A stretch of 64,000 nt of DNA, from NCBI RefSeq assembly GCF_040744945.1, contig NZ_CP160453.1:6386001-6450000 (forward strand), written 5' to 3'. Position 1 is the stretch's first letter, and the number at the start of each line of letters is the position of its first letter. The notes beneath the pieces were generated by a model. That model saw only the letters and a program-made list of their open reading frames with translations, made no database searches and was not told the origin of the DNA. Shown here piece by piece: positions 3,655 to 64,000 of this stretch. Source of the stretch: Saccharothrix sp. HUAS TT1. Lineage in GTDB: Bacteria > Actinomycetota > Actinomycetes > Mycobacteriales > Pseudonocardiaceae. The position numbers and the translations under genes were made by a program.

Positions 3655-4421
3655 CCCACTGGCGGCAGCTGTCCGACCGCGGCCCCGACCTCGTGCTGTG
3701 CCTGGACTTCCCCGGCGGGCGGGCCGCGGCCGGTTTCGCGGACCTGGCCGCCGGCGTCGACGTGGGCGCCTCCTTCCTGCACCTCGCCCAGCCGGGCGCC
3801 GGACCGCTGGACGCGTGCGTGGACCGCTGGGTGGCGGACGCGGCGTCGACCGGCCGACCGGTGCGCGCGGTGCTCGGGTACTGCGCCGGAGCCGCGTTGG
3901 CCACCTGCGTCGCCGACGCGGTCGCCGGGTCGGCCGCACCGCCGGTCACCCTGCTCTTCGACGCCGTCGGCACGTCGGCGGGCTCGCTGGCCCACCAGTT
4001 CACCTCCTCGCTGGAGACGTCCGCGGAGCACCTGACCGCCGACGAGCTGGACGGCGCCCGCGCGCTGGCGGACGGGCTGGTCGAGGCCCACCCGGACGAC
4101 CTGCCGCGCATCGCCGCCGCCCTGGTCGCGGCGTACGACGGGTTGATGGGCGCGGTCGCCGGCCGGCTGGGGCTCAACGAGTACTTCCGGCAGCAGCTCA
4201 CCGGCGGGTTCACCGCGTACGTGGAGTACCTGCTCCTGGCCGGCGCGGGCCGGTTCGACACGCGTTCGGGCACGCCGCTGTTCGTGTCCTCCAAGGACCA
4301 GGAGCCTCCGGTGGAGGACGCCAAGGGCCTGGCGGTGGACGTGGACCACACCGACCTGCTGCGCGCGGCCGAGGTGCACGGCCTGGTCGCCGAACTGCTG
4401 ATGGGAGAGCGCACATGGTGA
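3645..4421 (+). CDS. Alpha/beta-hydrolase or thioesterase-like protein with Cys nucleophile
   Basis: A 258-residue protein with an alpha/beta-hydrolase layout. The nucleophile elbow reads LGYCAGAA, so the usual thioesterase Ser of GxSxG is Cys (C80). A possible acid is D106 (LLFDAVGT) and a possible base is H235 (VDHTDLL). Cys at this position is known in PHA synthases and in a minority of NRPS thioesterases, where it favours acyl transfer or cyclisation over hydrolysis. The GTG start overlaps the upstream ligase by 10 bases and the end overlaps the next ORF by 7, so it belongs to the operon. It may release or transfer the product, or edit misloaded carriers. The role is inferred from the fold and context only. 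Confidence 0.7.
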   Translation: MELTHWRQLSDRGPDLVLCLDFPGGRAAAGFADLAAGVDVGASFLHLAQPGAGPLDACVDRWVADAASTGRPVRAVLGYCAGAALATCVADAVAGSAAPPVTLLFDAVGTSAGSLAHQFTSSLETSAEHLTADELDGARALADGLVEAHPDDLPRIAAALVAAYDGLMGAVAGRLGLNEYFRQQLTGGFTAYVEYLLLAGAGRFDTRSGTPLFVSSKDQEPPVEDAKGLAVDVDHTDLLRAAEVHGLVAELLMGERTW

Positions 4422-4924
4422 GCCTGGCCGAGATCTCCGAGGTGCTGTCGGCACATCCCGGTGTGGCCGAGGCCGAGGTCGCCGTCGTGCGCCACGACGG
4501 GCGCGAGGTCGTCGTCGCGGCCGTCGAGCTGACCGAGTTCCTGAGCGGGCCGGTGCTGCGCAACCACGTGCGGCAGCGGTTGGGCGAGGACTGCGGGCTC
4601 AACGGCGTGCTGGTCGTGGAGCGGGTGCCGAGGGTCGACGGCGCGGTGGACGTCGAATACCTGGCGGCGGCGGTCGCCGACGGCCGGTGCGCGCTGTTCG
4701 AGGACCCGGGCGACGACGTCGAGCGCCGGGTGGCCGAGATCTGGTCGGCGCAGATGGACGTCCGGCCGGTCGGCGCGACCGACGACTTCCTGGAGCTGGG
4801 CGGCGACTCGCTGTCGGCGCTGGGCATCATCGCCGCCATCGAGGCCGAGTTCGACCGACCGCTGGACGTGTACGAGTTCATGAGCGCCTCCAGCGTGCGG
4901 CGGCTGGCCGAGATGCTGCGGTAG
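4415..4924 (+). CDS. Ligase C-subdomain fused to peptidyl carrier protein
   Basis: A 169-residue two-part protein. Residues 1-90 resemble the small C-terminal subdomain of adenylating enzymes (HPGVAEAEVAVVRHDGREV, then VERVPRVDG), but the A10 lysine position reads DGAVDVEYL, so the catalytic lysine is missing and this part is probably structural or a docking piece. Residues 100-169 are a PCP with the 4'-phosphopantetheine serine S132 in LELGGDSLSAL. It lies between the Cys-hydrolase (7-base overlap) and the second ligase (2-base gap). It is probably the aminoacyl or acyl carrier loaded by one of the two neighbouring ligases. Confidence 0.85.
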   Translation: MVSLAEISEVLSAHPGVAEAEVAVVRHDGREVVVAAVELTEFLSGPVLRNHVRQRLGEDCGLNGVLVVERVPRVDGAVDVEYLAAAVADGRCALFEDPGDDVERRVAEIWSAQMDVRPVGATDDFLELGGDSLSALGIIAAIEAEFDRPLDVYEFMSASSVRRLAEMLR

Positions 4925-4926
4925 CG

Positions 4927-6384
4927 ATGACCCTCTCCGTCCACCAGCGCATCACCGGGATCGCGCGCGCCGAACCCGAGCGGGCGGCGCTGATCGGGTT
5001 CGACGCGGACCTGGTCGAGCGGACCCTGTCGTGGCGGGAGTTCGCCGACGAGGTCGACCGCGGGGTGGCCGCCCTGCGCGCGGCGCTCGACCCGAACGTC
5101 CGGTCGTGCGTCGTCGTGGAGGCGGGCAACACCCTGGCGGCGGCGACCGGCATCGCGGCGGCGCTCGCGGCCGAGGTCCCGGTGTTCCCGCTGAACCCGG
5201 GCACGCCGCCCGCCGAGCGGGACGTCCTGGTCGGCCTGCTCGGTCGGCGGTTCGAGCACGTGCGCCTGACGGGCGACCACGACCAGCCGGTGCGCGCCGC
5301 CGCGCCACCGCCCCCGGCGGGTGACGTGGCGTACCTGCTGGCCACGGGCGCGAGCACGGGCGTCCCCAAGATCTCCGCGAAGCCGGGGCCGCTGCGCTAC
5401 GACCCGGCCCGGACGCCGTCCCTGGTGATCCGGCAGACCGGCTGGCGCACGGGCCAGCGGCAGCTCATCGTCGGCCCGCTCTACCACGCCGCGCCGTTCA
5501 CCGCGTTCGTGGACGCGGTGCTCGACATGAACACCGTTGTGCTGCAACCGTTCTTCTCCCCGCAGTGGACGGTCGAGCTGGTCCGGGAGCACCGCGTCGA
5601 GTGGCTGCAGCTCACCCCGACGCACATGCGCGAGGTCCTGATGCTGGCGAACCCCGATCCGACGAGCTTCGCCAGCCTGCGCGCGCTGCTGCACACCGCC
5701 GCCCGCTGCGACGAGGGCACCAAGCGCGGGTGGATCGACCTGCTCGGCCCGGAACGGGTCTTCGAGCTGTACGGCGCGACCGAGGGCATCGGCGTGACGC
5801 TGGCCCGCGGTGACGAGTGGCTGGCCCGGCCGGGCACGGTCGGCCGCGGCTTCCTCACCCAGCTCCGCGTGCTGGACGACGACGGCGCGCCCGTCCCGCC
5901 GGGCGTGGTCGGCACCGTCTTCATGCGCACGCCGCGGCGGGTCGGCCGCTCCGACTACGTCAACGACCTGGTGGTCCGCTCCACCCCGGACGGCTTCGCC
6001 ACCGTCGGCGACCGCGGCCGGGTCGACCGGGACGGCTACCTGCACCTCGAACCGCGCGACCAGGGCGCCATCAACGTGGGCGGCGAGAAGGTCGACCCGG
6101 ACGAGGTCGAGGCGGCGCTGCTGGCGCACCCCGCGGTGGTCGACGCCGTCGCCCTCGCCGTGCCGCACGGGACGCTCGGGTCGGTGGTCGGCGTCCAGGT
6201 GGTGCTGCGCCCCGGCGCGAACGTCCGCAAGGCCGAGCTCGCCGCGCACTGCGGCCGGCGGCTGGCCGGTTACAAGGTCCCGAAGCACTTCACGTTCGTC
6301 GAACGACTCCCCCGGTCCGCGGCCGGGAAGATCCAGCGCTGGCGGCTCGCCGCCGGTCACGAGGGCGGTGCGACCACGCGATGA
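4927..6384 (+). CDS. Second adenylate-forming ligase
   Basis: A 485-residue ANL-superfamily ligase. The A3 loop is a variant, LLATGASTGVPKIS (residues 137-150), the A5 motif is YGATEGIG near 282, the hinge region is GDRGRVDRDGYLHLEP near 361, and the A10 lysine is in SAAGKIQRW near 465, so it should be catalytically competent. It resembles acyl-CoA or bile-acid-CoA ligase-type members more than canonical amino-acid-activating A-domains; I infer an aryl or acyl acid substrate. The ATG start lies 2 bases after the PCP stop and its TGA overlaps the next ATG (ATGA), so it is translated as part of the operon. Confidence 0.87.
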   Translation: MTLSVHQRITGIARAEPERAALIGFDADLVERTLSWREFADEVDRGVAALRAALDPNVRSCVVVEAGNTLAAATGIAAALAAEVPVFPLNPGTPPAERDVLVGLLGRRFEHVRLTGDHDQPVRAAAPPPPAGDVAYLLATGASTGVPKISAKPGPLRYDPARTPSLVIRQTGWRTGQRQLIVGPLYHAAPFTAFVDAVLDMNTVVLQPFFSPQWTVELVREHRVEWLQLTPTHMREVLMLANPDPTSFASLRALLHTAARCDEGTKRGWIDLLGPERVFELYGATEGIGVTLARGDEWLARPGTVGRGFLTQLRVLDDDGAPVPPGVVGTVFMRTPRRVGRSDYVNDLVVRSTPDGFATVGDRGRVDRDGYLHLEPRDQGAINVGGEKVDPDEVEAALLAHPAVVDAVALAVPHGTLGSVVGVQVVLRPGANVRKAELAAHCGRRLAGYKVPKHFTFVERLPRSAAGKIQRWRLAAGHEGGATTR

Positions 6385-54316: not shown

Positions 54317-55102
54317 TCACGCGTTGGCGAGCAACCCCTCGAACACGGCCCGCGCCTCACCGCCGGGCCTGATGCCGAGGTCCGCGTCGAGCACCCGGCA
54401 CAGCCTGCGGTAGACGTCGATCGCGCCGACGCGGTCACCCGTGTGCGCCAAGGCTCGCATCAACAACACCTGCGACGACTCCCTGGTGGGGTGGGCGGAC
54501 GCCTGGGGCACCAGGAGGTCCGCCGCCTCGGCCCACGCGCCGAGCGCCGCTTTCGCCGTCGCCAGGTGTTCCACGGCGGTGAGCCTGCGCTCGCGCCACA
54601 GCGCGGCCACCGCCGTCGCCGGGCCGGACGGCACCAGGCCGACCAGGCCGTCGACCGGCCAGATCGCCAGCCCCGCGGTCAACGCGGCCACCGCGCACGA
54701 CGCGTCGCCCAGTCGCAGCGCGGCCGCGCCGCGCCGCGCCAACCCGTCGGCGCACAGCGCGTCCACGGCGTCGGCGGGCACGTCGAGCCGGTAGCCGTGG
54801 CCCACGTGCACGAGGAGTCGGGAGAAGCCGGGGTTCGCCGCGTCCAGGCACCGGCGCAGCCGCGACGCGTACAGCTGGAGGTTCTTCACCGCGCTGCGCG
54901 GGGGTTCCTGCTCCCACAGGAAGTCCATCAGCCGATCGGTGGACACCGCCGCGCCGGCGTCCAGCGCCAGCGCCGCCAGCAACGTCCGCGCCTTCACCCC
55001 TCCCGGCACCACGTCGCGCACGGTCGGCCCGCTCACCGCCGGACCACCCAGCACCCGGACGTCGACCTCCTGCTCCACACGCAACGTCGAACAGACCGAC
55101 AC
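54317..55102 (-). CDS. SARP-family regulator, likely thiopeptide cluster activator
   Basis: A 261-residue Streptomyces antibiotic regulatory protein (AfsR/DnrI type). Residues 8-100 form the OmpR-like winged helix (VRVLGGPAV, then ARTLLAALALDAGAAVSTDR and KNLQLYASRLRRCLD with GHGYRLDV); 105-261 form the BTAD domain with TPR-like helices (HPTRESSQVLLMRALAHTGD, GAIDVYRRLCRVLDADLGIR). Such proteins bind heptameric direct repeats and recruit RNA polymerase to biosynthetic genes. GTG at 55102 was chosen for its GGGGAG ribosome site. It is divergent from the thiopeptide precursor, which places it as the probable pathway activator. Confidence 0.9.
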   Translation of the reverse strand: MSVCSTLRVEQEVDVRVLGGPAVSGPTVRDVVPGGVKARTLLAALALDAGAAVSTDRLMDFLWEQEPPRSAVKNLQLYASRLRRCLDAANPGFSRLLVHVGHGYRLDVPADAVDALCADGLARRGAAALRLGDASCAVAALTAGLAIWPVDGLVGLVPSGPATAVAALWRERRLTAVEHLATAKAALGAWAEAADLLVPQASAHPTRESSQVLLMRALAHTGDRVGAIDVYRRLCRVLDADLGIRPGGEARAVFEGLLANA

Positions 55103-55395
55103 CCCGGATCTCCCCACCTCGAACCCCACCGACCACCGCACACGGTAGGTCGTGGTCCGAGCGGCGCGGCGGAAGTCCGAACACCGCGCACCACCGCCCG
55201 GCGCACCGCATACCGGACGTATACCGGCAGGTGGGAGCGTGCCGCTCGTTGCCCACGCCGCGGAGAGGCGCCCGATGACCCCGGACGAACCCGATTCGGA
55301 TAACCGCAAGGCCGCCGGCCGGGTGGTCGGGGTCACCGCGCCCGGTCCCGGCCGGGCAGCTCGCCACCCGATCCACCGACGAAAGGACGTGACCG
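55103..55395. promoter_or_regulatory. Divergent control region with SARP-type repeats
   Basis: This 293-base gap separates the SARP gene from the thiopeptide precursor. ATACCGG occurs at 55210-55216 and again at 55221-55227: two 7-base direct repeats with a 4-base spacer, an 11-base period, which is the known layout of SARP-binding sites. A weak -10-like GATAAC lies at 55299-55304. The precursor ATG is preceded by GAAAGGA (55381-55387). No gene is supported in the gap. Confidence 0.6.
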
Positions 55396-55563
55396 ATGGA
55401 CCTCACCTTCGACGACTCGGAGCTGGACCTCGGAGACCTGGCCGTCACCGCGATGCGCGACGCGGTCGCGCTGCCGGAGACGGGCGCCTCGGCGGCCGCG
55501 TGCTCGTGCAGCAGCACCTCGTGCTGCTGCTGTCAGCAGCCGCAGCTCCCGACGCACGGCTGA
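55396..55563 (+). CDS. Thiopeptide precursor peptide (lactazole-type leader)
   Basis: A 55-residue precursor. The leader (residues 1-31) has DLGDLAVTAMRDAVALPETG, very like the lactazole precursor leader (LSELTVTSLRDTVALPENGA in LazA). The cleavage is expected after A31. The core (32-55) starts SAAACSCSSTSCCCC and ends QQPQLPTHG, a tail similar to the AQPQ tail of LazA. Cysteines should become thiazoles and Ser/Thr dehydroamino acids or oxazoles; core Ser1 (S32) and Ser11 (S42, followed by Cys) are the best pair for the pyridine-forming cycloaddition. A ribosome site GAAAGGA precedes the ATG. It is followed by a hairpin and the maturation operon. Confidence 0.92.
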   Translation: MDLTFDDSELDLGDLAVTAMRDAVALPETGASAAACSCSSTSCCCCQQPQLPTHG

Positions 55564-55574
55564 GTCGACGCGAA

Positions 55575-55604
55575 CCGGGGGCGTCCGCTCGCGGGCGCCC
55601 CCGG
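55575..55604 (+). terminator. Attenuator hairpin between precursor and maturation genes
   Basis: CCGGGGGCG at 55575-55583 and CGCCCCCGG at 55596-55604 form a 9-base GC-only stem with a 12-base loop, 12 bases after the precursor stop and 22 before the dehydratase ATG. A partial terminator at this site is common in RiPP clusters and would give more precursor than enzyme transcript. Confidence 0.65.
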
Positions 55605-55626
55605 CCCTCACCACGGGGAGCACCGG

Positions 55627-58074
55627 ATGGCCACTGACCCGACGGGCCGCACCACCACCGAACTCGCGCCGTACGCGCTGGTCCGGGTCGCCGCGCTGCC
55701 GCACCCCCGACCGGTCGCGTCGGACTTCCGGACCGGGTTGGACGCGGTCGTGGCGGCGCACGCCCGGATCGCGGCGCGGGCGCCCGACCTCGCCGACGCG
55801 CTGCACGACAGCGCCGCCGGCCACTCGGCCGGGTTCCACCGGCGGGTCGTGCTCCCGTTGCGCCGCGACGTGCACAACGGTCGCGCGCCGCGCCCGGAGT
55901 CGACGGCGGAGCTGGGCGACCTGCCGGAACGGGTGCCCCTGCTCCGCGCCTGGCTGACCGCGCACGACGAGCTGGCGCGCGCGGTGGACGCGGTGCTGGC
56001 GGCGTGGCCGGACGAGCTGGCCGCGTCCCGGGCGTGGCTCGCGGAGGTGTGCGCGGCCGACCCGCTGCGCCGCGCGAGCGTGCTGACCGGCCCCGACCTG
56101 CTGCACGGCTTGGACCGCACCGCGCGCGGCCAGGGCGTGCCCGACCGGCGGGCGCGCAAGGCCGAGCCGACGACGCTCCGGTACGCGTTGCGCGCGACCG
56201 CGAAGACCAGTCCCCTGTCCTGGTACACGCACGTCGGTTGGGGCGCGTGGGGCGACGGGCCGTGGCCCGCGGCGGAGCCGGTGTCGCGCCCGGCCGTGCA
56301 CCGCCTGCTGGTGACCAGGCTGCTCGACGCCTTGGGCCCCCGGCTGCCGCACCGGCTCGCTCCGGCCCTCCGCGAGCGCGACGGCCGGGTGCTGTTCCGC
56401 CGGGACGCCCCGGTGGAGGGCTCCGGCCGGGCCGCGGTGGTCCGCGAGGAGGAGGTGGACGTCGCCGCTTCCGGCCCGCTGCGGTTCGTGGTCGACCTCG
56501 TTCGGGGAGCCGGGCCCGACGGGCTGCCGCCCGCCCGGATCGCCGAGGCGCTGGCGGCGCGGTTGACCACCGCCGACGCGGATCACAAGGCGCACGACTT
56601 CGTGACCCGGACCCTGGCCGTGGGCCTGCTGGTGCCGGTACCGCCGATCCACCCCCAGGACCCGGACGCGGTGGGCTCGCTGGCCGCGTGGCTGGCGCCG
56701 ACCGACGCCGACACCGCGGACCGGTTGACCGCGCTCGCCACCACCACGGCCGCGTTCGCGCACGCCGACCCGCCCGCCCGCGTCACCGCGCTGGCCGGGT
56801 TGGCCGCGGGCTGGCGCGACCTCGGCGAACGGGTGGGCGCGGACCTGACCGGCGTCACGCCGGTGGTCGAGGACGTGGTGCTGCCCGAGCCGGTGCCGGT
56901 GCCACCGGGCGCGGCGCCCGCGCTGACCCGCCTCACGCCGCTGCTGGTGGCGTTCGACCAGCAGGTCCTGCTGCGCCGGCTGATCCGGACCAGGTTCGTG
57001 GAGCGGTTCGGCGAGGGCGGTGACGCCTCGCCCGCCGAGTGCGCCGCGCCGCTGGCGCTGGCGTGGCAGGACTCGATGGACCCGGGCCTGGCCGACGACG
57101 CGCGGGACCCCGGTGTCCGCGCGGTCTTCCAGCTCCGCGAGAAGCTGGCCGGGCAGGTGCACGAGGGCGTCGTCACCGACGACGTGCTGCGGTCCGCGGT
57201 CGACCTGCTGCCCGCGTGGGCGACCCGGCGCACCGGCTCGTACGGCTTCTTCGCCCAGCCGACCCGCGACGGCCGGCTGGTGGTCAACCACGTCTACGCC
57301 GGGTTCGGCAAGTTCACCAGCCGCTTCCTCGACCTGCTGCCCGGCGCGCGCGACGCGGTGACCCGCCAGGTGTCCCGGCACACCACCGAACCCGTGCAGT
57401 TCCGGCCGGTGCAGGGCTTCAACGCGAACCTGCACCCCCTGCTCGGCGCGCGCGAGGTCGGCGAGGACGCCCGCTGGGCCGACCTGGTCGCCGACGAGCT
57501 GCGGGTGCGGCACGACCCGGTCGCCGACGAGGTGCGGTTGACCCACCGCGGCGTCCCGCTCGACGTGCTCTACCTGGGCTTCCTGATCCCGCCCGCGCTG
57601 CCGGACCGGCAGGTGGCGCTGTACTCCGACCTCGCCTGCGGGTGGGTCGACCTCGACCGGCTGCGCGCCGTCACCGAGGACGGCGGTGTCACCGCACGGG
57701 GCCGCCTGACCTTCGGGGACGTCGTGCTGGCGCGCCGTTCCTGGGACTTCGCCACGCCGCCGCCGGTCGGCGCGGAGGAGCGGGCCGCGCTGGACGTGGC
57801 CCGGTTGCGCGCCCGGCACGGGCTGCCGGAGCACGTGTTCGTCGGGCCGGACCGGGGGCCGGTGTCGGCCGACGCCTACCGACGCGCGCTCACGGCGGCC
57901 AAACCGCAGTACGCCGACCTCGGCGACCCGCTGCACCTGCGCTGCCTGCCCCGGCTGCTGGCCCGGTTCCCGGACGGCGTGCGGCTGACCGAGGCGCTGC
58001 CGGTGCCCGGCGCCGGGTCGCCGACCGGCCGGGTGGTCGAACTGATCGCGGAAACGTACTGGAGGGCTTCGTGA
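55627..58074 (+). CDS. LanB-type tRNA-dependent glutamylation dehydratase (LazB-like)
   Basis: An 815-residue protein matching the N-terminal (glutamylation) part of LanB dehydratases, as in split thiopeptide enzymes such as TbtB and LazB. It uses glutamyl-tRNA to glutamylate Ser/Thr side chains of the precursor core, before elimination to Dha/Dhb by a partner. Typical segments are APYALVRVAALPHPRPVASD at the start, EPTTLRYALRATAKTSPLSW, TSPLSWYTHVGWGAWGD, and near the end the VGPDRGPVSADAYRRALTAA region. There is no fused SpaB_C elimination domain, so that step must be done by another protein. Its stop overlaps the next GTG by 4 bases. Confidence 0.9.
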   Translation: MATDPTGRTTTELAPYALVRVAALPHPRPVASDFRTGLDAVVAAHARIAARAPDLADALHDSAAGHSAGFHRRVVLPLRRDVHNGRAPRPESTAELGDLPERVPLLRAWLTAHDELARAVDAVLAAWPDELAASRAWLAEVCAADPLRRASVLTGPDLLHGLDRTARGQGVPDRRARKAEPTTLRYALRATAKTSPLSWYTHVGWGAWGDGPWPAAEPVSRPAVHRLLVTRLLDALGPRLPHRLAPALRERDGRVLFRRDAPVEGSGRAAVVREEEVDVAASGPLRFVVDLVRGAGPDGLPPARIAEALAARLTTADADHKAHDFVTRTLAVGLLVPVPPIHPQDPDAVGSLAAWLAPTDADTADRLTALATTTAAFAHADPPARVTALAGLAAGWRDLGERVGADLTGVTPVVEDVVLPEPVPVPPGAAPALTRLTPLLVAFDQQVLLRRLIRTRFVERFGEGGDASPAECAAPLALAWQDSMDPGLADDARDPGVRAVFQLREKLAGQVHEGVVTDDVLRSAVDLLPAWATRRTGSYGFFAQPTRDGRLVVNHVYAGFGKFTSRFLDLLPGARDAVTRQVSRHTTEPVQFRPVQGFNANLHPLLGAREVGEDARWADLVADELRVRHDPVADEVRLTHRGVPLDVLYLGFLIPPALPDRQVALYSDLACGWVDLDRLRAVTEDGGVTARGRLTFGDVVLARRSWDFATPPPVGAEERAALDVARLRARHGLPEHVFVGPDRGPVSADAYRRALTAAKPQYADLGDPLHLRCLPRLLARFPDGVRLTEALPVPGAGSPTGRVVELIAETYWRAS

Positions 58075-59144
58075 CCGATGTCGTCTGCTACTACCACAAC
58101 CCGGTGAAGGCGCCCCTCCTCCGCGACGCCGTGCTGCCCGCGCTCGCCGAGGCCGAGGACGCCGGCGCCACCGGGCACGTGGAGCGGCACTGGTTGCACG
58201 GGCCGCACGTGCGGGTGCGGCTCGACGGTCCGGAGGCCGCCGACCTCGTCGCCTCGCGGCTGCGGGCGCACCTGGCCGCGCGACCGTCCACCGCGGCGGC
58301 GGACCCGGCGGCATTGTTGGCGCAGTCCCGGCGGAACGGGATCGCCGAACTCGTGCCGCCGCCCTACGAGCCGATCCACCCGGACAACACCGTGCTCGTC
58401 GAGCCGACCGACCTCGCCGACCTGCGCCGGCTGCTGGGTTCCGACGTGCTGGTCGACCTGCGCGCCCGGTGCCTGCGGCTGGGCGTGCCCGCGATCGCCG
58501 ACGCCGTGGCGGTGGACGGGACCGGCCCGTCACGCGTGCAGTCGGCCGTGGTGGCGATGGCGGCGCACGCGAGCCGGTTCCCGGCGGGCCTCGTCAACGG
58601 CTACCACTCGTTCCTGTCCCACCTGGAGGGCTTCCTGCTGCACAGCGATCCCGACGGCGTGCTGCGCGACCGGTTCGACCGGGTGTGGGAGCGCAACGCC
58701 GACCCGGTGGTGGACACCGTGCGTGGTGTCGCCGAGGGCGACGTCACCACGCCGTGGGTCACCTGGACGGACGCCTCCCGCGCGTTGATCGAGGAGGTCT
58801 TCGACCGCGGCGACCTGCCCACGGCCTACTCGGCGCACCTCGGCGAGCGCGCCGTGGCGATGGGCGAGGAGGAGGCGATCCGGCGCTGGAACCGCGCCGA
58901 CGACGACCCGGTCAGCGAGTACCACGCCAGGTTGCGCGACGTCGACTTCGACCACCCGGCCTACCAGCGCCCGGTCACCGTCTACCGCTTCGGCACCAAC
59001 GTGCTCTACCAGCTGCTGGCCGTGTGCGACGTGACGCCGGTCGAGCGCTACCTGGCCGCGAGCCTGGTCGTGCGGGCGGTGCAGCGGATCACCGGGATCG
59101 GCTGGTCGGAGCACGTCGCGCAGATGGCGCGGGTGGCGAGGTGA
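58071..59144 (+). CDS. SpaB_C-family protein, probable pyridine synthase (LazC-like)
   Basis: A 357-residue thiopeptide-type biosynthesis protein related to the C-terminal part of LanB. The start is TDVVCYYHNPVKAPLLRDAV, then HVERHWLHGPHVRVRLDGPE, and the later part contains GYHSFLSHLEGFLLHSDPDG and VTVYRFGTNVLYQLLAVCDV. In lactazole-type clusters the gene right after the LanB piece encodes the enzyme that joins two dehydroalanines by aza-cycloaddition, expels the leader and closes the macrocycle. By gene order and size I assign that role here, but the related elimination enzymes share the fold and are difficult to tell apart by eye. It overlaps both neighbours by 4 bases. Confidence 0.78.
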   Translation: MTDVVCYYHNPVKAPLLRDAVLPALAEAEDAGATGHVERHWLHGPHVRVRLDGPEAADLVASRLRAHLAARPSTAAADPAALLAQSRRNGIAELVPPPYEPIHPDNTVLVEPTDLADLRRLLGSDVLVDLRARCLRLGVPAIADAVAVDGTGPSRVQSAVVAMAAHASRFPAGLVNGYHSFLSHLEGFLLHSDPDGVLRDRFDRVWERNADPVVDTVRGVAEGDVTTPWVTWTDASRALIEEVFDRGDLPTAYSAHLGERAVAMGEEEAIRRWNRADDDPVSEYHARLRDVDFDHPAYQRPVTVYRFGTNVLYQLLAVCDVTPVERYLAASLVVRAVQRITGIGWSEHVAQMARVAR

Positions 59145-60688
59145 GCGGGGTCCTGCTGCGGCTGCGGCCGATCGCGCACGCGACGCCCACGGAGACCGGC
59201 CTGCACGTGCGGGGATGGCGTTCCAGCTTCACCCTCGACGGCGGCAGGGGGCTGTGGACGATCTGGGAACGCCTGGCCGGTCCGCTGGCCGAGGGCGTGC
59301 CGCCGGAGCAGCTGGCGGTGCCGGAGCACGCGTCGCCCGCGGTGGCCCGGGCGCTGGAACTGCTCATCGGACAGCTGCGGGAGCACGACCTGCTGGTGGA
59401 GGTGCCCGCCGAGTGGGGCCCCGACGCGCCGCCCGAGGACATCGCGAGCTGGCTGGAGTCCGTCGCGCCGGCACCGCTGGAGGCGTGGCGCCGGCTCCGG
59501 TCGGCGACGGTCGAGGTGATCGGCGAGGGCGCCCTGGCCGCTGCCGCGCGGCGCGCGCTCGGCGCGGCGGGGCTGGAGGTGACCGCCCGGTCCGGGCCGG
59601 GGCTGCTCCTGGTCGCCGGGGAGCACGCCGTCGCGGCCGGGTGCGCCGCCGAGGTCGGTTTCGCGGTCGCACCCGGCCCGGTCGCCGACGTGACGGCGGA
59701 CGCGGCGGCGGTGGCGGACCGGTTGGCGGGCACTGCCGGGGAGCCGCCGGAGGTGCTGGCCGCCCTGGTCGGCTCGGCCGCCGCGCACCGGCTGGTCTGC
59801 GCGTTGGGCGGGTTGCCCGACCCGTCGGGCGAGGTGGTCGACATGTGGAGCGACGTGCCGCCCGGCGGCCCGCCGCACCAGGCCGTCCTGGTGGCCCGGG
59901 TCGACCCGCTGCACGCCGAGTACCACCCGTGGCTGTCCGCCGTCCGCCCGCGGGAGCCGAACGGCACGCTGCTGGACGTGCTGGGCGACCGCGAACTGGG
60001 CCCCGTCCCCACCCCGCTGCCCGGCGACCTGCCGCAGCTGCCGGTGAAGCTGGCGGCGTCCGGTGACGTGATCGGGTACGGGACCACCGAGCACGCCGCC
60101 CGGCTCGACGCCCTGCTGCGCGCCGCGCGTCGGCTCGCGCCGGAGGGCGCGGTGCTCGGCGCGGACCGGGTGCACGCCCTCGGGCTGGCCCTGCGCACGG
60201 CGGTCCGGCGGCTGCCCGGCACGCCGGTCGCGGAGTCGGAGTGGTCTGCCGACCCGACCGCCCGGCGCTGGTGGAAGGCCGTGGCGCTGCGGTTCGCGCT
60301 GCCCGCCGCGGTGGAGGTGACCCGGCTCGGGGACGGCGTGGTGCGGGCCGTGGTCCGGGCGGACGGCAAGGAGCTGTCCTGGGCGGTCGAGGCCGAACCG
60401 GCGGACGCCGTCGCGTTCGCCGCCCTGGCAGCGGCCGGATCGGCGCAGGCCGGATCGGGCGCCGGGCCCGTCGTCCTCTGCGGAGCCGCGCCCGTGCCCA
60501 CCCCTGACGCGGCCGCCGCGCCGTGGACCAACCGCGACTGGTACTGGCCCTACGGGTTGCGTGACGCCGAAGACGCGTTCCAGGAGGCCCTGCGCGCGCT
60601 CGCGGCCGACGTCAAGCCGGTGCACCTCGGCCCGGTGCTGGAAGCCGCCGGGCTGGTGGCGTTCGCGGCGCCCGAGGAGGGCCGGTGA
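59141..60688 (+). CDS. Leader-binding cyclodehydratase partner protein (LazD-like)
   Basis: A 515-residue protein in the position of the Ocin-ThiF-like/TclI-type partner of the YcaO enzyme. In thiazole-forming pathways this protein carries the RiPP recognition element that binds the leader and presents the core to the cyclodehydratase. The N-terminal part (VLLRLRPIAHATPTETGLHV, RSSFTLDGGRGLWTIWERLA) could form the winged-helix recognition element; the middle (SATVEVIGEGALAAAARRAL) is Rossmann-like. There are no strong catalytic motifs and no CxxC zinc sites. The assignment is mainly from gene order. GTG start in a 4-base overlap with the previous stop. Confidence 0.72.
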   Translation: MSGVLLRLRPIAHATPTETGLHVRGWRSSFTLDGGRGLWTIWERLAGPLAEGVPPEQLAVPEHASPAVARALELLIGQLREHDLLVEVPAEWGPDAPPEDIASWLESVAPAPLEAWRRLRSATVEVIGEGALAAAARRALGAAGLEVTARSGPGLLLVAGEHAVAAGCAAEVGFAVAPGPVADVTADAAAVADRLAGTAGEPPEVLAALVGSAAAHRLVCALGGLPDPSGEVVDMWSDVPPGGPPHQAVLVARVDPLHAEYHPWLSAVRPREPNGTLLDVLGDRELGPVPTPLPGDLPQLPVKLAASGDVIGYGTTEHAARLDALLRAARRLAPEGAVLGADRVHALGLALRTAVRRLPGTPVAESEWSADPTARRWWKAVALRFALPAAVEVTRLGDGVVRAVVRADGKELSWAVEAEPADAVAFAALAAAGSAQAGSGAGPVVLCGAAPVPTPDAAAAPWTNRDWYWPYGLRDAEDAFQEALRALAADVKPVHLGPVLEAAGLVAFAAPEEGR

Positions 60689-62373
60689 CCGTGCGGGTGG
60701 TGGAGCTGACCGACTACACGATCGGCGACCTGGCCGACGTCGGCGCGGACGGTCCCGTGCTGCCGGTGCGGTTCGACGGCGCGCTGGTGCTGATCGGGCC
60801 GGTGTCGGACGGCGTGTGCGTGAGCTGCGCCGAGGACGCCCGCCTCGCCACGCTCGGCGAGTCGGTACCGCGCGGCAACCCGCGGATGCGGTTGGGCGGC
60901 ACTGCCCCGCCGACCCTGCGGCCGCTGCTGGCCCTGCTGGTGGACCGCGTGCTGGCCGACCCGGAGGGGCACCGCGACCGGGTCCTGGCGCTGCGGACCG
61001 ACCTGGCGACCGTGGGCGAGCACCGGGTGCGCCCCCGGCCGGGCGGCTGCCCGACGTGCGGCCCGCTGCCCGAGGACTCCCCGGAGGCCGCGGCGGTCGT
61101 CCGCGCGCCCGTGCCGGTGACGCCCGGAACGCTGCGCGGCCCGAACCCGCTCACCGGGGGCGACGCCCTGCACCGCGAGCTGTTCGACCTCAGGCACGGT
61201 CCGGTGGGCGGGATGCACCGCATCGGCGACCTGACCGTGGCGGCGGTCAGCGCCGAACTGGGCGGCGGCCAGGCGGGCTTCGGTCGCACCGCCGACTACG
61301 CCGAGGCCGAACGCGTCGCGCTGTACGAGGCGGTCGAACGGCACGCGGGGCTGCGCCCCCGGCGCGTCACCACGGTGCTGGAGGCGTCGTTCGCCGAACT
61401 GGGCGACCGCGCGCTGGACCCGACCCGCCTCGGTCTGCCCGACCACGAGTCACCGCACGTCGTGCCCTACAACCCGGACGTGCGGACCCGATGGGTGCAC
61501 GGCTGGTCCTACACCCACGCCCGCCCCGTCGCGGTGCCCGAGCACGTGGCCTACTGGGGCCCGGCGGTGGGACCCCGGTTCGTGGACGAGACGTCCAACG
61601 GCTGCGGCGCCGGCAACAGCCTCACCGAGGCCGTGCTGTACGGGCTGTTCGAGGTCGCCGAGCGGGACGCGTTCCTGACCGCCTGGTACGGCCGCGCCCG
61701 GCTGCCCCGGCTGCGGGTGCGCGACGACGTGACCGGGCACATCGCGGACCGGCTGGACCAGCTCGGCTACCGGCTGGAGCTGTACGACGCCACCAACGAC
61801 CTGGGCGTGCCGTCCGTGCTGTCGCTCGCCCGCTGCACGTCACCGCGACCGCAGCTGCCCAGGGCGTTCTTCGCCGCCGGCGCGGGTCTGGACCCGGACG
61901 CGGCGATGCGCTCGGCGGCGGCCGAGGTCGCGATGGACGTGGAGGCGGGCGCCAAGCGGTACCGCGTCGAACCCGGCGACTACGACCCGGACCGGTTGCG
62001 CCGGCTGCTGCGCGAGCCGCGGCTGATCCGCAGCATGGACGACCACGTGAACGTCAACGGGCTGCCGGAAGCCGCCGAGCGGTACGACTTCCTGGCCGAC
62101 GGCCCGGAGTACGACCTCGTGACGCCCGACGTGCCGCGCGACGACCTGGACGCGCTGCTGGAGCACTACGTGCGCCGGTGGGCGGAGCTGGACCTGGAGG
62201 TGATCGCGGTCGACCAGAGCGACCCGGTGGTGCGCGACCGGCTCGGCCTGCACTCGGCCAAGGTGATCGTGCCCGGTGCGGTGCCGATGACGTTCGGCGA
62301 GCTGAACCGGCGCACCCGCGGCCTGCCGCGGCTGCGCCTGGCCGGCGACCCGCTGCCCCACCCGTTCCCGTGA
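60685..62373 (+). CDS. YcaO azoline-forming cyclodehydratase (LazE-like)
   Basis: A 562-residue YcaO enzyme. It activates backbone amides with ATP and cyclises Cys (and some Ser/Thr) to thiazolines/oxazolines. Residues 1-150 form an E1-like/C-protein-type region with two CxxC pairs, C45-V-S-C48 and C122-P-T-C125, a likely zinc tetrad. The YcaO core has the ATP/Mg-binding acids in ADYAEAERVALYEAVERHAG and DETSNGCGAGNSLTEAVLYG with FEVAERDAF. The C-terminus is LPHPFP, the PxPxP end typical of azoline-forming YcaOs. The GTG start overlaps the LazD-like stop by 4 bases. Confidence 0.93.
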   Translation: MTVRVVELTDYTIGDLADVGADGPVLPVRFDGALVLIGPVSDGVCVSCAEDARLATLGESVPRGNPRMRLGGTAPPTLRPLLALLVDRVLADPEGHRDRVLALRTDLATVGEHRVRPRPGGCPTCGPLPEDSPEAAAVVRAPVPVTPGTLRGPNPLTGGDALHRELFDLRHGPVGGMHRIGDLTVAAVSAELGGGQAGFGRTADYAEAERVALYEAVERHAGLRPRRVTTVLEASFAELGDRALDPTRLGLPDHESPHVVPYNPDVRTRWVHGWSYTHARPVAVPEHVAYWGPAVGPRFVDETSNGCGAGNSLTEAVLYGLFEVAERDAFLTAWYGRARLPRLRVRDDVTGHIADRLDQLGYRLELYDATNDLGVPSVLSLARCTSPRPQLPRAFFAAGAGLDPDAAMRSAAAEVAMDVEAGAKRYRVEPGDYDPDRLRRLLREPRLIRSMDDHVNVNGLPEAAERYDFLADGPEYDLVTPDVPRDDLDALLEHYVRRWAELDLEVIAVDQSDPVVRDRLGLHSAKVIVPGAVPMTFGELNRRTRGLPRLRLAGDPLPHPFP

Positions 62374-63488
62374 GCGCGGAGTCCGCGGCGCTGGCCGCCG
62401 CCTACAGCCACGGTCCCGGGCGGGTGGTCGAGCCCGGCACGTCGCCGCGCACGGCCGCTGCCTCGGGACCGCGCGTGCCACTGGCGGCGTTGGCCGCGCA
62501 GGGCCCCTTCGGCGAGGCGCTGGCGCGGTTGCTGACCGACGTCGCGACACCGCTGCGGTGGGAACCGTGGAACCAGTACAACGACCACCGGTCGTACCCG
62601 TCCGCGCGTGCCGCGTCCACTGTGGACCTGGCGCTGGCGGTCGGCGCGCGGCGGTGGGTGCTGGACCCCGTGCGGCGGGCCCTGGTCGGTGACGGGACGC
62701 CCGTGCCGGACGGTCCCGCGCGGGTCGAGCTGGTCCGCCGCCGCGACCGCCTGTCCCCCGGCTACCGCGAGTTCGGCGACGTGCTGACCGAGCTGGAGGT
62801 CGGTCACGTCGCGGCGGCGCTGGTCGAGCACGCGGCCCGGCTCGGTCTCGGCGCCAGGGCCGACGGGCTGACCGTCACCGTGGCGTTCGACGGTGGTACC
62901 ACCGGCCCGGTATCCGTCCCACACCGCAGTTCAGGCGTTGGTCCACGTGGTATCGCGGCCGACCCGAGGCCGCTGCCCGCGGGCGTGCTGGACGCCGTGG
63001 TCGAGGCCGTCAACCACCCGCCGGCCGGTTCACCGGTGCGCGCCGACCTGCGGCACCGGTTGGCCGTGCGCAACGTCGAGGGCGTCGCCGACGGCTGGTA
63101 CGCGGTGACCGGCGGCCTGCGGCTGGTCGAGCCGGGACCGGCCGTACCCGGCCTGCGACCGGTGTTCGGGCACCCGCCCGGCACCCTCGACATCGCCTCG
63201 ATGAACCTCGCCCTGGTGACGACCGGCGACCCGGCCGCCGCGGTGGCGTCGGACGGGCCGGACGGCTACCGGGCGCTGCTGCGCGCCGCCGGCGCCACCG
63301 CGCAGCACGTGGGCACGGCCGCCGCGGCCGAGGGCGCGTTCTGCCGCCCGGTCCGCAGCACCGACGACGGCCCGCTGGAGGCCCTGGCCGGCGCGCCGCC
63401 GTCGCACTCGCTGCTCTACCTGCTCCTGGCCGGCCGCCCGCGCGGCACCGGCTTCGCCTACGACCTCACACCCCTGGAGGCGCGATGA
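62370..63488 (+). CDS. SagB/nitroreductase-type azoline dehydrogenase
   Basis: A 372-residue FMN-dependent oxidoreductase of the nitroreductase (SagB-type) fold, expected to oxidise thiazolines and oxazolines to thiazoles and oxazoles. Two consecutive nitroreductase-like stretches are visible: SYPSARAASTVDLALAVGAR at about residues 71-90 and LRHRLAVRNVEGVADGWYAV with GHPPGTLDIASMNLALVTTG and a C-terminal ALAGAPPSHSLLYLLLAGRP. In the lactazole pathway this activity is fused to an elimination domain (LazF); here the gene ends by itself and overlaps the next gene by 4 bases, so the two functions are split. GTG start overlaps the YcaO stop. Confidence 0.85.
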   Translation: MSAESAALAAAYSHGPGRVVEPGTSPRTAAASGPRVPLAALAAQGPFGEALARLLTDVATPLRWEPWNQYNDHRSYPSARAASTVDLALAVGARRWVLDPVRRALVGDGTPVPDGPARVELVRRRDRLSPGYREFGDVLTELEVGHVAAALVEHAARLGLGARADGLTVTVAFDGGTTGPVSVPHRSSGVGPRGIAADPRPLPAGVLDAVVEAVNHPPAGSPVRADLRHRLAVRNVEGVADGWYAVTGGLRLVEPGPAVPGLRPVFGHPPGTLDIASMNLALVTTGDPAAAVASDGPDGYRALLRAAGATAQHVGTAAAAEGAFCRPVRSTDDGPLEALAGAPPSHSLLYLLLAGRPRGTGFAYDLTPLEAR

Positions 63489-64000
63489 CGTGGACCAGCC
63501 TGCACGTGCGGCTGTCCTGGTCGGTCGAGGACGTCGACGCGTTCATCGCCGACGTCCTCGCACCGGAGCTGGACGGGCGGCGGCGGCAGGGGCGCCTCGC
63601 CGACTGGTTCTACATCCGGTACTGGCGGACCGGCCCGCACCTGCGCGTCCGGCTGCGGGACGCCACCGAGGACCTGGCCGACCGGCTGCGCGACCTCGTC
63701 GCACTGGCGGATCACCCAGTCGTGGACGTGGACCCGTCCGCGTTCGACGGCTGGCTGCCGCACGGCGACGTCCGCGAGACGCCCTACGAGCCCGAGGTGG
63801 ACCGGTACGGCGGCCCGGACGCGCTGCCCGTGGCCGAGGAGGTGTTCTGCCGCAGCACCGAGGTGGCGGTCGCCGTGCTCCGGTCCGTCCGCACGCGGGG
63901 CGCGAAGTTCACCGCCGCCGTGGAGCTGGCGATGGCCACGACCACCGCGCTGAAGCTGGACCGGGTGGAGGCGGCGTCCTGGCTGCGGTCGCTGGCCACG
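63485..64000 (+). CDS. SpaB_C-type glutamate-elimination protein, partial at right edge
   Basis: The first 172 residues of a LanB C-terminal (SpaB_C) family protein. The start TWTSLHVRLSWSVEDVDAFI, then WFYIRYWRTGPHLRVRLRDA, is the typical beginning of thiopeptide elimination or pyridine-forming proteins. Since a LazC-like protein already exists at 58071, I expect this one to remove glutamate from glutamylated Ser/Thr to give dehydroamino acids, the function held by the elimination half of LazF. The ATG sits in an ATGA overlap with the dehydrogenase stop. The C-terminus lies beyond the window. Confidence 0.85.
   Translation, partial: MTWTSLHVRLSWSVEDVDAFIADVLAPELDGRRRQGRLADWFYIRYWRTGPHLRVRLRDATEDLADRLRDLVALADHPVVDVDPSAFDGWLPHGDVRETPYEPEVDRYGGPDALPVAEEVFCRSTEVAVAVLRSVRTRGAKFTAAVELAMATTTALKLDRVEAASWLRSLAT

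What the first reader, a model, noticed from the sequence alone, without database searches (positions are those of the whole stretch)
54317..64000. Lactazole-like thiopeptide cluster with a divergent core: Ser1/Ser11 spacing and four consecutive cysteines
The leader of the 55-residue precursor at 55396 matches LazA almost residue for residue in the VTxxRDxVALPExGA part, and the tail also resembles LazA. The core differs: it begins SAAACSCSSTSCCCC, so Cys12-15 could give four adjacent thiazoles. Known thiopeptides use Ser1 with Ser10 (26-membered), Ser11 (29), Ser12 (32, lactazole) or Ser13 (35). Here the best second Ser, followed by Cys, is position 11, predicting a 29-membered ring of GE2270 size on lactazole-type machinery. 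Ala at positions 2-4 would leave that part unmodified. Ring size and thiazole count are inference.
Basis: partly seen in the sequence, partly recalled or inferred. Interest (0 to 1): 0.85.

Follow-up and report, generated by a model that had tools for sequence, protein, structure and literature searches.

The report
Lactazole-type cluster with four-cysteine tail
A soil actinomycete carries a compact gene set that should turn a short peptide into a thiopeptide of the lactazole kind, with a smaller ring and a row of four cysteines in the tail, plus one extra oxidase-like gene that in related bacteria goes together with such cysteine rows.

Summary
A 55-residue precursor (55396-55563; PF19409 46.8 bits, NF033400 61.5 bits) with core SAAACSCSSTSCCCC precedes a tightly coupled lazB-C-D-E-[extra]-F operon that runs past the window end to 65050. 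Ser1/Ser11 is supported by relatives: among 12 same-genus precursors with this leader, Thr10, Ser11 and Cys12-15 do not vary while positions 2, 3 and 9 do; in 27 distinct cores with three or four adjacent Cys (window included) Ser stands directly before the run in 26 and before Thr-CCC in one; Ser9-Thr10-Ser11-Cys12 aligns with lactazole's Ser10-Ser11-Ser12-Cys13. The core is not unique: three other genomes encode it exactly. All 20 counted clusters that carry it have runs of two or more Cys; of 41 without it, one has. But this is about three changes on the tree, so suggestive only. Product, ring and thiazole count remain untested chemistry. New variant of a known kind.

The parts
54317..55336 (-). 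SARP-family regulator, divergent from the operon
   Evidence: PF03704 91.1 bits, PF00486 34.5 bits; best tblastn match of 62-80% identity on the - strand upstream of the operon in 7 of 72 loci (L053-L056, L059, L061, L075), 32-36% in others
55396..55563 (+). thiopeptide precursor (lazA type), leader 31 aa, core from Ser at codon 32
55627..58074 (+). lazB type: glutamylation half of the split dehydratase
   Evidence: PF04738 73.5 bits, no NCBIfam match; best segments 82-84% to the five closest clusters (L053-L056, L075), 36-46% in Streptomyces loci
58071..59144 (+). lazC type: pyridine synthase
   Evidence: NF045556 155 bits, below its equivalog cut-off of 325; 239 homologues at E<=1e-10 among the 7999 candidates scored; 41-48% in Streptomyces loci
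59141..60688 (+). lazD type: partner of the cyclodehydratase
   Evidence: no Pfam or NCBIfam match; named by position and by homology to the gene at the same place in the related loci
60685..62373 (+). lazE type: YcaO cyclodehydratase
   Evidence: PF02624 253 bits, TIGR03604 238.1 bits over its cut-off; residues 24-174 also match TIGR03882, a leader-binding domain model, 52.6 bits over its cut-off of 36.9
62370..63488 (+). extra gene: compact two-domain nitroreductase-fold protein, azoline-oxidase-like, not among the five described laz enzymes
63485..64000 (+). lazF type, first part only; the gene runs on to 65050 outside the window: Glu-elimination domain fused to a SagB-type dehydrogenase domain
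   Evidence: L005:485-2047: PF14028 137.1 bits, PF00881 42.6 bits, both over cut-off; TIGR03891 98.8 bits over, TIGR03605 64.2 bits under its cut-off of 78.4

Best explanation
A lactazole-type thiopeptide gene cluster. LazD/LazE bind the leader and turn Cys5, Cys7, Thr10 and Cys12-15 into azolines; the dehydrogenase domain of LazF, helped by the extra two-domain oxidase (62370-63488), oxidises them to azoles; LazB with the front half of LazF turns Ser1, Ser6, Ser9 (perhaps Ser8) and Ser11 into dehydroalanine; LazC joins Dha1 and Dha11 into a pyridine, casts off the leader as its amide and closes a 29-membered ring. The tail leaves the pyridine as four thiazoles in a row, followed by all or part of QQPQLPTHG. 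Shown by sequence: genes, order, homology, conservation, predicted fold. Inferred: every chemical step (by analogy with the published lactazole pathway), the azole at Thr10, the count of thiazoles, and the task of the extra oxidase.
For: All five laz enzyme types are present with 4-nt overlaps at every junction B-C-D-E-extra-F. Ser9-Thr10-Ser11-Cys12 aligns with lactazole Ser10(Dha)-Ser11(oxazole)-Ser12(pyridine)-Cys13(thiazole), whose three Ser are essential there (PMC7210931). Among 12 same-genus precursors with this leader, residues 10-15 do not vary. In 27 distinct cores with a run of three or four Cys, the window's included, Ser stands directly before the run in 26 and before Thr-CCC in one. 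Laz enzymes made 29- to 23-membered rings efficiently from shortened minimal cores in vitro. The extra protein's best fold matches are 3eo7 and the oxidases BmdC and McbC; it is a shortened homologue of the stand-alone dehydrogenase between the YcaO and elimination genes of two other thiopeptide-type clusters (L142, L143); it has runs of two or more Cys beside it in 20 of 20 counted clusters against 1 of 41 without it.
Against: No product is known. NF045556 is matched below its cut-off. On the LazE tree the extra gene changes state only 3 times; on starred branches there are 2 independent pairs, sign test median p 0.5, so the link to Cys runs could be shared descent. Thr in place of the azole Ser11 of lactazole and Ala or Thr at position 2 in place of Trp (needed for smooth LazA processing) are untested; Ser9, aligned with an essential lactazole Ser, is Gly in 3 of 12 genomes. 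Seven of the 27 cores have Gly before the anchor Ser, where lactazole has an azole. The 12 genomes were picked as bearers of this leader and core type, so their constancy at 10-15 is weaker evidence than a blind sample.
Confidence: 0.7

Rival explanations
1. The second pyridine Ser is Ser6 in the Cys-Ser-Cys motif, the classical thiopeptide motif, giving a 14-membered ring.
For: Thz-Dha-Thz is the usual 4-pi site in classical thiopeptides (recalled). Laz enzymes can form 14-membered rings at low efficiency.
Against: Lactazole has azoles at 5 and 7 and closes its ring at Ser12, so a CSC at that place stays in the ring. Several relatives have no CSC (SGGSCSGGSSCCCC, SGGGSCCGSSCCCC, SIGASCGSSCCC) but keep Ser before the Cys run.
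Confidence: 0.05
2. The pyridine forms at Ser8, flanked by Cys7, giving a 20-membered ring; the rest is a longer tail.
For: Ser8 does not vary in the 12 same-genus precursors of this type.
Against: The residue after the CSC is Gly, Asn, Cys or Ser in the other cores, so it is not a conserved Ser.
Confidence: 0.04
3. The ring is right but the tail Cys are not four thiazoles: some stay thiazoline or free thiol, bind metal, or the tail is cut off.
For: No structure exists. Tail trimming is known in thiopeptides (recalled). One search of the held open-access library for tetra-, quater- or polythiazole with thiopeptide listed 14 papers, with no occurrence of tetrathiazole, quaterthiazole, contiguous or consecutive thiazole (listing only).
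Against: Cys12-15 do not vary in the 12 precursors although codons 13 and 15 vary silently; one relative has Thr, still azole-competent, at the first place of the run (SQSCSCCGSTCCC).
Confidence: 0.25
4. The extra oxidase-like gene is an inherited relic or a partner subunit with no special link to adjacent azoles.
For: Only 3 changes on the tree; homologous stand-alone dehydrogenases exist in other thiopeptide-type clusters, so it may simply be the ancestral enzyme kept in one group.
Against: 20 of 20 against 1 of 41 co-occurrence, with absence of both in the Lentzea rows, which lie inside a starred 27-row set otherwise bearing the gene, and no match in 10 of 10 g25 genomes searched whole; the gene is conserved and coupled in the operon.
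Confidence: 0.45
5. A linear azole- and dehydroalanine-bearing peptide, no pyridine.
For: Two same-genus clusters have the same genes without lazC at that place and with short precursors (L144, L145).
Against: The window has an intact lazC in the operon, and those two clusters have differently ending leaders and cores.
Confidence: 0.05

Closest known systems
Lactazole A / laz cluster of Streptomyces lactacystinaeus
   Same: Leader type, LazB-F enzyme types with fused elimination-dehydrogenase LazF, unmodified residue expected at core position 2, Ser/Thr-Ser-Cys pattern around the pyridine
   Different: 29- instead of 32-membered ring predicted, Thr in place of the azole Ser, four tail Cys instead of one, one extra oxidase-like gene; lactazole facts from PMC7210931, its letters recalled
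GE2270 / thiomuracin type thiopeptides
   Same: 29-membered ring of GE2270 (recalled); a stand-alone dehydrogenase gene (TbtE, recalled)
   Different: Core pattern, fused LazF, no azole at position 2 predicted; no gene of these clusters was compared here, only the unnamed clusters L142 and L143
Pyritides (Micromonospora rosaria)
   Same: Pyridine macrocycle without neighbouring azoles, as the Gly-Ser relatives would need
   Different: The pyritide cluster lacks azole genes and Cys in its precursors; rings 14 and 17 (PMC9247985, passages)
Goadsporin
   Same: Azoles plus dehydroalanines in a linear peptide (PMC7210931 and PMC10676384), the likely analogue of the lazC-less clusters L144 and L145
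   Different: The window has a pyridine synthase gene

Membership tests
lactazole-type thiopeptides | Precursor with thiopeptide leader | tested here: met
   PF19409 and NF033400 over cut-off
lactazole-type thiopeptides | LazF-type fusion of Glu-elimination and SagB-type dehydrogenase domains | tested here: met
   PF14028 plus PF00881, both over cut-off, in one 521-aa protein; TIGR03605 under its cut-off
lactazole-type thiopeptides | LazB, LazC, LazD, LazE homologues in the order of the Streptomyces laz-like loci | tested here: met
   LazC below the NF045556 cut-off, LazD by homology and position only; the deposited laz sequence itself was not compared
lactazole-type thiopeptides | Just five enzymes (property of the prototype, not of the family) | tested here: not met
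   a sixth enzyme-like gene at 62370-63488
lactazole-type thiopeptides | Sequence pattern for the pyridine: Ser1 plus Ser-(Ser/Thr)-Ser-Cys | tested here: met
   Ser1 and Ser9-Thr10-Ser11-Cys12, with Thr for Ser as the azole residue; in 3 of 12 relatives Ser9 is Gly
lactazole-type thiopeptides | Pyridine-closed macrocycle in the product | not testable with these tools
   no product or mass data
TbtD/PbtD pyridine synthase equivalog (NF045556) | Score over the curated cut-off of 325 bits | tested here: not met
   155 bits: a relative, not filed as this equivalog
azoline oxidases of nitroreductase fold (extra gene) | Nitroreductase fold | tested here: met
SagB family peptide dehydrogenase TIGR03605 (extra gene) | Over the curated cut-off | tested here: not met
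   12 bits against 78.4
azoline oxidases of nitroreductase fold (extra gene) | FMN binding and catalytic activity | not tested
   no FMN-site comparison or assay
pyritides | No azole-forming enzymes, no Cys in the core | tested here: not met
   YcaO and Cys-rich core present
goadsporin-like linear peptides | No pyridine synthase gene | tested here: not met
   lazC type gene present

The most novel reading that the evidence does not exclude
The window belongs to an uncharacterised group of lactazole-type clusters in which nature varies the ring from 20 to more than 40 atoms while holding a tri- or tetra-thiazole tail fixed, and in which a second, ancestral two-domain azoline oxidase has been kept precisely to oxidise adjacent azolines; in some members the pyridine carries no azole next to it (Gly before the pyridine Ser), a form between thiopeptides and pyritides.
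Probability: 0.35. Interest if true: 0.7.

Novelty: new variant of a known kind. Interest (0 to 1): 0.5.

Why it matters
Lactazole-like clusters are about half of predicted thiopeptide clusters (251 of 508, cited in PMC7210931), yet laz was the only characterised one as of that 2020 paper. Here relatives give a natural series of predicted ring sizes with a nearly constant tail, and a concrete, testable candidate for how adjacent azoles are made. If the tetrathiazole tail is real, it would be a tail type not met in the one search made for it in the open-access library held, and the extra oxidase could widen the laz in vitro system to poly-thiazole products.

Tried and rejected
Ser6 or Ser8 as the pyridine partner: disfavoured by the pattern across relatives. 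A claim that the core is unique: rejected; identical cores in L013, L014 (same full core in L055, Saccharothrix luteola) and L015 (same in L053, Saccharothrix sp. NRRL B-16348). A significant statistical link between the extra gene and Cys runs: not granted, 2 independent pairs. Extra independent cases in the genus of G673 were sought but the search gave no answer twice; families of G477 and G711 were searched instead. One search found only G477 itself (1 of 35). Of the 4 of 250 genomes, G711 and G810 repeat loci already held (contig lengths equal those of L079 and L066), G916 showed no precursor by the pattern in the first 14 kb of its contig, and G897 is a distant match (4.5e-26, 861-aa frame) near two precursors with runs of two Cys; neither was counted. 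PDB sequence search with the extra protein found nothing at E<=0.1; with its profile only 3eo7 stood out. Of seven neighbours other than the SARP gene shown, none recurs at a fixed place: the gene at 65124-65924 has relatives in four loci but upstream of the operon; the others match in 0 to 2 loci. Transporter or immunity genes were not searched for as such.

Rows left out of counts. One search gave 175 candidate precursors; 6 without a [LVI]P[ED] leader were dropped. Left out of the co-occurrence count: L060 (lazC and precursor only; Cys run 3, no extra gene in the locus), L070 and L076 (contigs end before the place; runs 4 and 2), L086 (has the extra gene and a run of 3, no lazE on the contig), further loci without a lazE match long enough, and L092, L099, L114, L119 (no precursor found). 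The one contrary row is L122 (run 2, no extra gene). 'Without' means not in the locus. The states were entered by hand, and run 2 for L144 and L145. Eleven distant matches other than the window and G711 exist; only two (G673, G477) were looked into. In one search, 22 of 44 genomes match, 17 strongly; five weak ones (G062, G103, G118, G121, G252) were not followed.

Literature searches, listings only, open-access library. Papers: PMC7210931 outline, passages, sections 4, 6, 9 and part 1 of 2 of section 7; PMC9120177, PMC10979747, PMC10683472, PMC9247985, PMC4603692, PMC10676384 passages only. The 2018 bioinformatic survey of thiopeptides (recalled as the source of 251 of 508) was not met as a held paper and was not seen; it may list this precursor. 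LazA's letters and GE2270's ring size are recalled; the recalled 16-residue lactazole core gave [M+H]+ 1401.398, that is m/z 701.20 for 2+, equal to the published value.
Full report
What is there. The precursor at 55396-55563 reads MDLTFDDSELDLGDLAVTAMRDAVALPETGA-SAAACSCSSTSCCCCQQPQLPTHG. It matches the thiopeptide precursor models PF19409 (46.8 bits, cut-off 23.5) and NF033400 (61.5, cut-off 30). Over 12 same-genus copies (its own included), 18 of 31 leader codons vary only silently and 1 in residue; in the first 15 core codons 4 vary silently and 3 in residue. The gene is real and under constraint.

The operon. Behind it follow lazB (55627-58074), lazC (58071-59144), lazD (59141-60688), lazE (60685-62373), an extra gene (62370-63488) and lazF (63485-65050, the last 1,050 bases outside the window). 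Every junction from B to F overlaps by four bases. Domains: PF04738 in LazB, PF02624 and TIGR03604 in LazE, NF045556 at 155 bits in LazC, below its cut-off of 325, PF14028 plus PF00881 in LazF. LazD has no library match and is named by homology and position; leader binding is given to LazD in the lactazole paper, while here the front of LazE also matches the leader-binding model TIGR03882 over its cut-off. A SARP regulator lies divergently at 54317-55336 and recurs, at 62-80% identity, upstream in seven of 72 loci. The window lies in an 8.7 Mb genome whose nearest clusters on the LazE tree are from Saccharothrix and Actinosynnema.

Relatives. A scan of named genomes with a LazC alignment gave 72 loci; a search of 390 genomes of the family found NF033400 matches in 36, 34 of them over the cut-off, with one control genome (Bacillus subtilis) ringing below it. 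The window's 15-residue core is identical in three other genomes (L013, L014, L015), with close variants STAACSCSSTSCCCC (Actinosynnema pretiosum, L061), SAQACSCSSTSCCCC and SAAACSCSGTSCCCC.

Which Ser closes the ring. In lactazole Ser1 and Ser12 form the pyridine; S1A, S10A, S11A and S12A abolish it; azoles sit at 5, 7, 11 and 13 (PMC7210931). The window's Ser9-Thr10-Ser11-Cys12 aligns with Ser10-Ser11-Ser12-Cys13, one residue shorter inside the ring. Over the 12 precursors with this leader type Thr10, Ser11 and Cys12-15 do not vary, while positions 2, 3 and 9 do; they were chosen as bearers of this type, so the constancy is expected in part. A broader view: over 27 distinct cores with three or four adjacent Cys, the window's included, gathered from the loci and four proteins, Ser stands directly before the run in 26 and before Thr-CCC in one. 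The predicted partner is at position 8 (3 cores), 9 (5), 10 (7), 11 (4), 12 (1), 13 (4), 14 (1), 15 (1) and 17 (1), rings of 20 to 47 atoms. The residue before it is Ser in 16, Gly in 7, Thr in 4. The Gly cores speak against a simple carry-over of the lactazole rule, since the pyridine would lack an azole on that side; in L057, L058 and L059 they share a cluster, and so LazC, with Ser cores. Laz enzymes made 29- to 23-membered rings well and 14 to 62 in all in vitro, so natural variation is plausible, and a 29-membered ring alone is not surprising.

Co-occurrence. Of 61 clusters with lazE and a readable precursor (the window, L144 and L145 included), 20 of 20 with the extra gene have a run of two or more Cys, and 40 of 41 without it in the locus have none; L122 is the exception. 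Lentzea rows lack both (SCSSC tails) and lie inside a starred 27-row set whose other 18 rows bear the gene; 0 of 10 g25 genomes, whose precursors equal or closely resemble those of Lentzea loci, match it when searched whole. Among 15 same-genus genomes with a precursor match, 14 have a strong match to the gene; G056, with a different cluster, has none. But the tree needs only 3 changes, 2 independent pairs exist on starred branches, and the sign test has median p 0.5. The link is a lead.

Prediction. Seven azoles (5, 7, 10, 12-15), Dha from Ser6 and Ser9, pyridine from Ser1 and Ser11. The mass rule, core minus 20.026 per azole, 18.011 per dehydration and 35.037 for pyridine closure, gives lactazole A (core recalled) the published m/z 701.20 for 2+ and 2125.62 as [M+H]+ for the window's full core.

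Verdict. The large bioinformatic survey that may already list the precursor could not be read here.

Noticed in passing
L144 (G058), L145 (G065:C12): Same-genus clusters with lazB, D, E, the extra oxidase and lazF but no lazC between lazB and lazD, with short precursor-like ORFs ending ASCSCCSRPTQG, ASCSCCSQPTQA and STACSCCSSRPHLEPKTK: perhaps linear goadsporin-like products. G058 has only a weak lazC match (6.4e-4), in its lazF region; G065 has a lazC in another cluster.
   Followed up: partly
L059 (Saccharothrix obliqua SC076), 4584-5360: Five tandem precursors in one cluster, with predicted partners at Ser8 or Ser9 and CCCC (four) or TCCC (one) tails.
   Followed up: partly
L057, L058, L059, P0004, L086: Seven distinct cores with Gly directly before the presumed pyridine Ser, which would leave the pyridine without an azole there.
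   Followed up: partly
L060 (Saccharothrix sp. NRRL B-16348): A lazC with precursor core SQGSGSCGSSCCC but no other laz gene in the 17 kb locus; the same strain has two full clusters (L053, L063), so it may work in trans.
   Followed up: no
L088, L095, L097, L098, L100, L103, L108, L115, L118, L121, L124: Lactazole-like clusters with two precursors, one SWGSCSCQ(G/A)SSSC (Ser12) and one SNGGSSCSCGSSSC (Ser13, 35-membered if the same rule holds).
   Followed up: no
L066, L070, L079: A second, divergent lazC on the opposite strand beside precursors such as TSGSSSSDSSSTCGSSSCCSSVAQQ.
   Followed up: no
L142 (G673), 4212-4550: A thiopeptide-type precursor with core SSGDTSCCSSSSSSSSCCCC, also ending in four Cys, in a cluster with the longer stand-alone dehydrogenase.
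   Followed up: no
G000:C1:6351860-6352600 (L003): Another Lant_dehydr_C gene in the window's genome about 90 kb before the precursor (69.6 bits).
   Followed up: no
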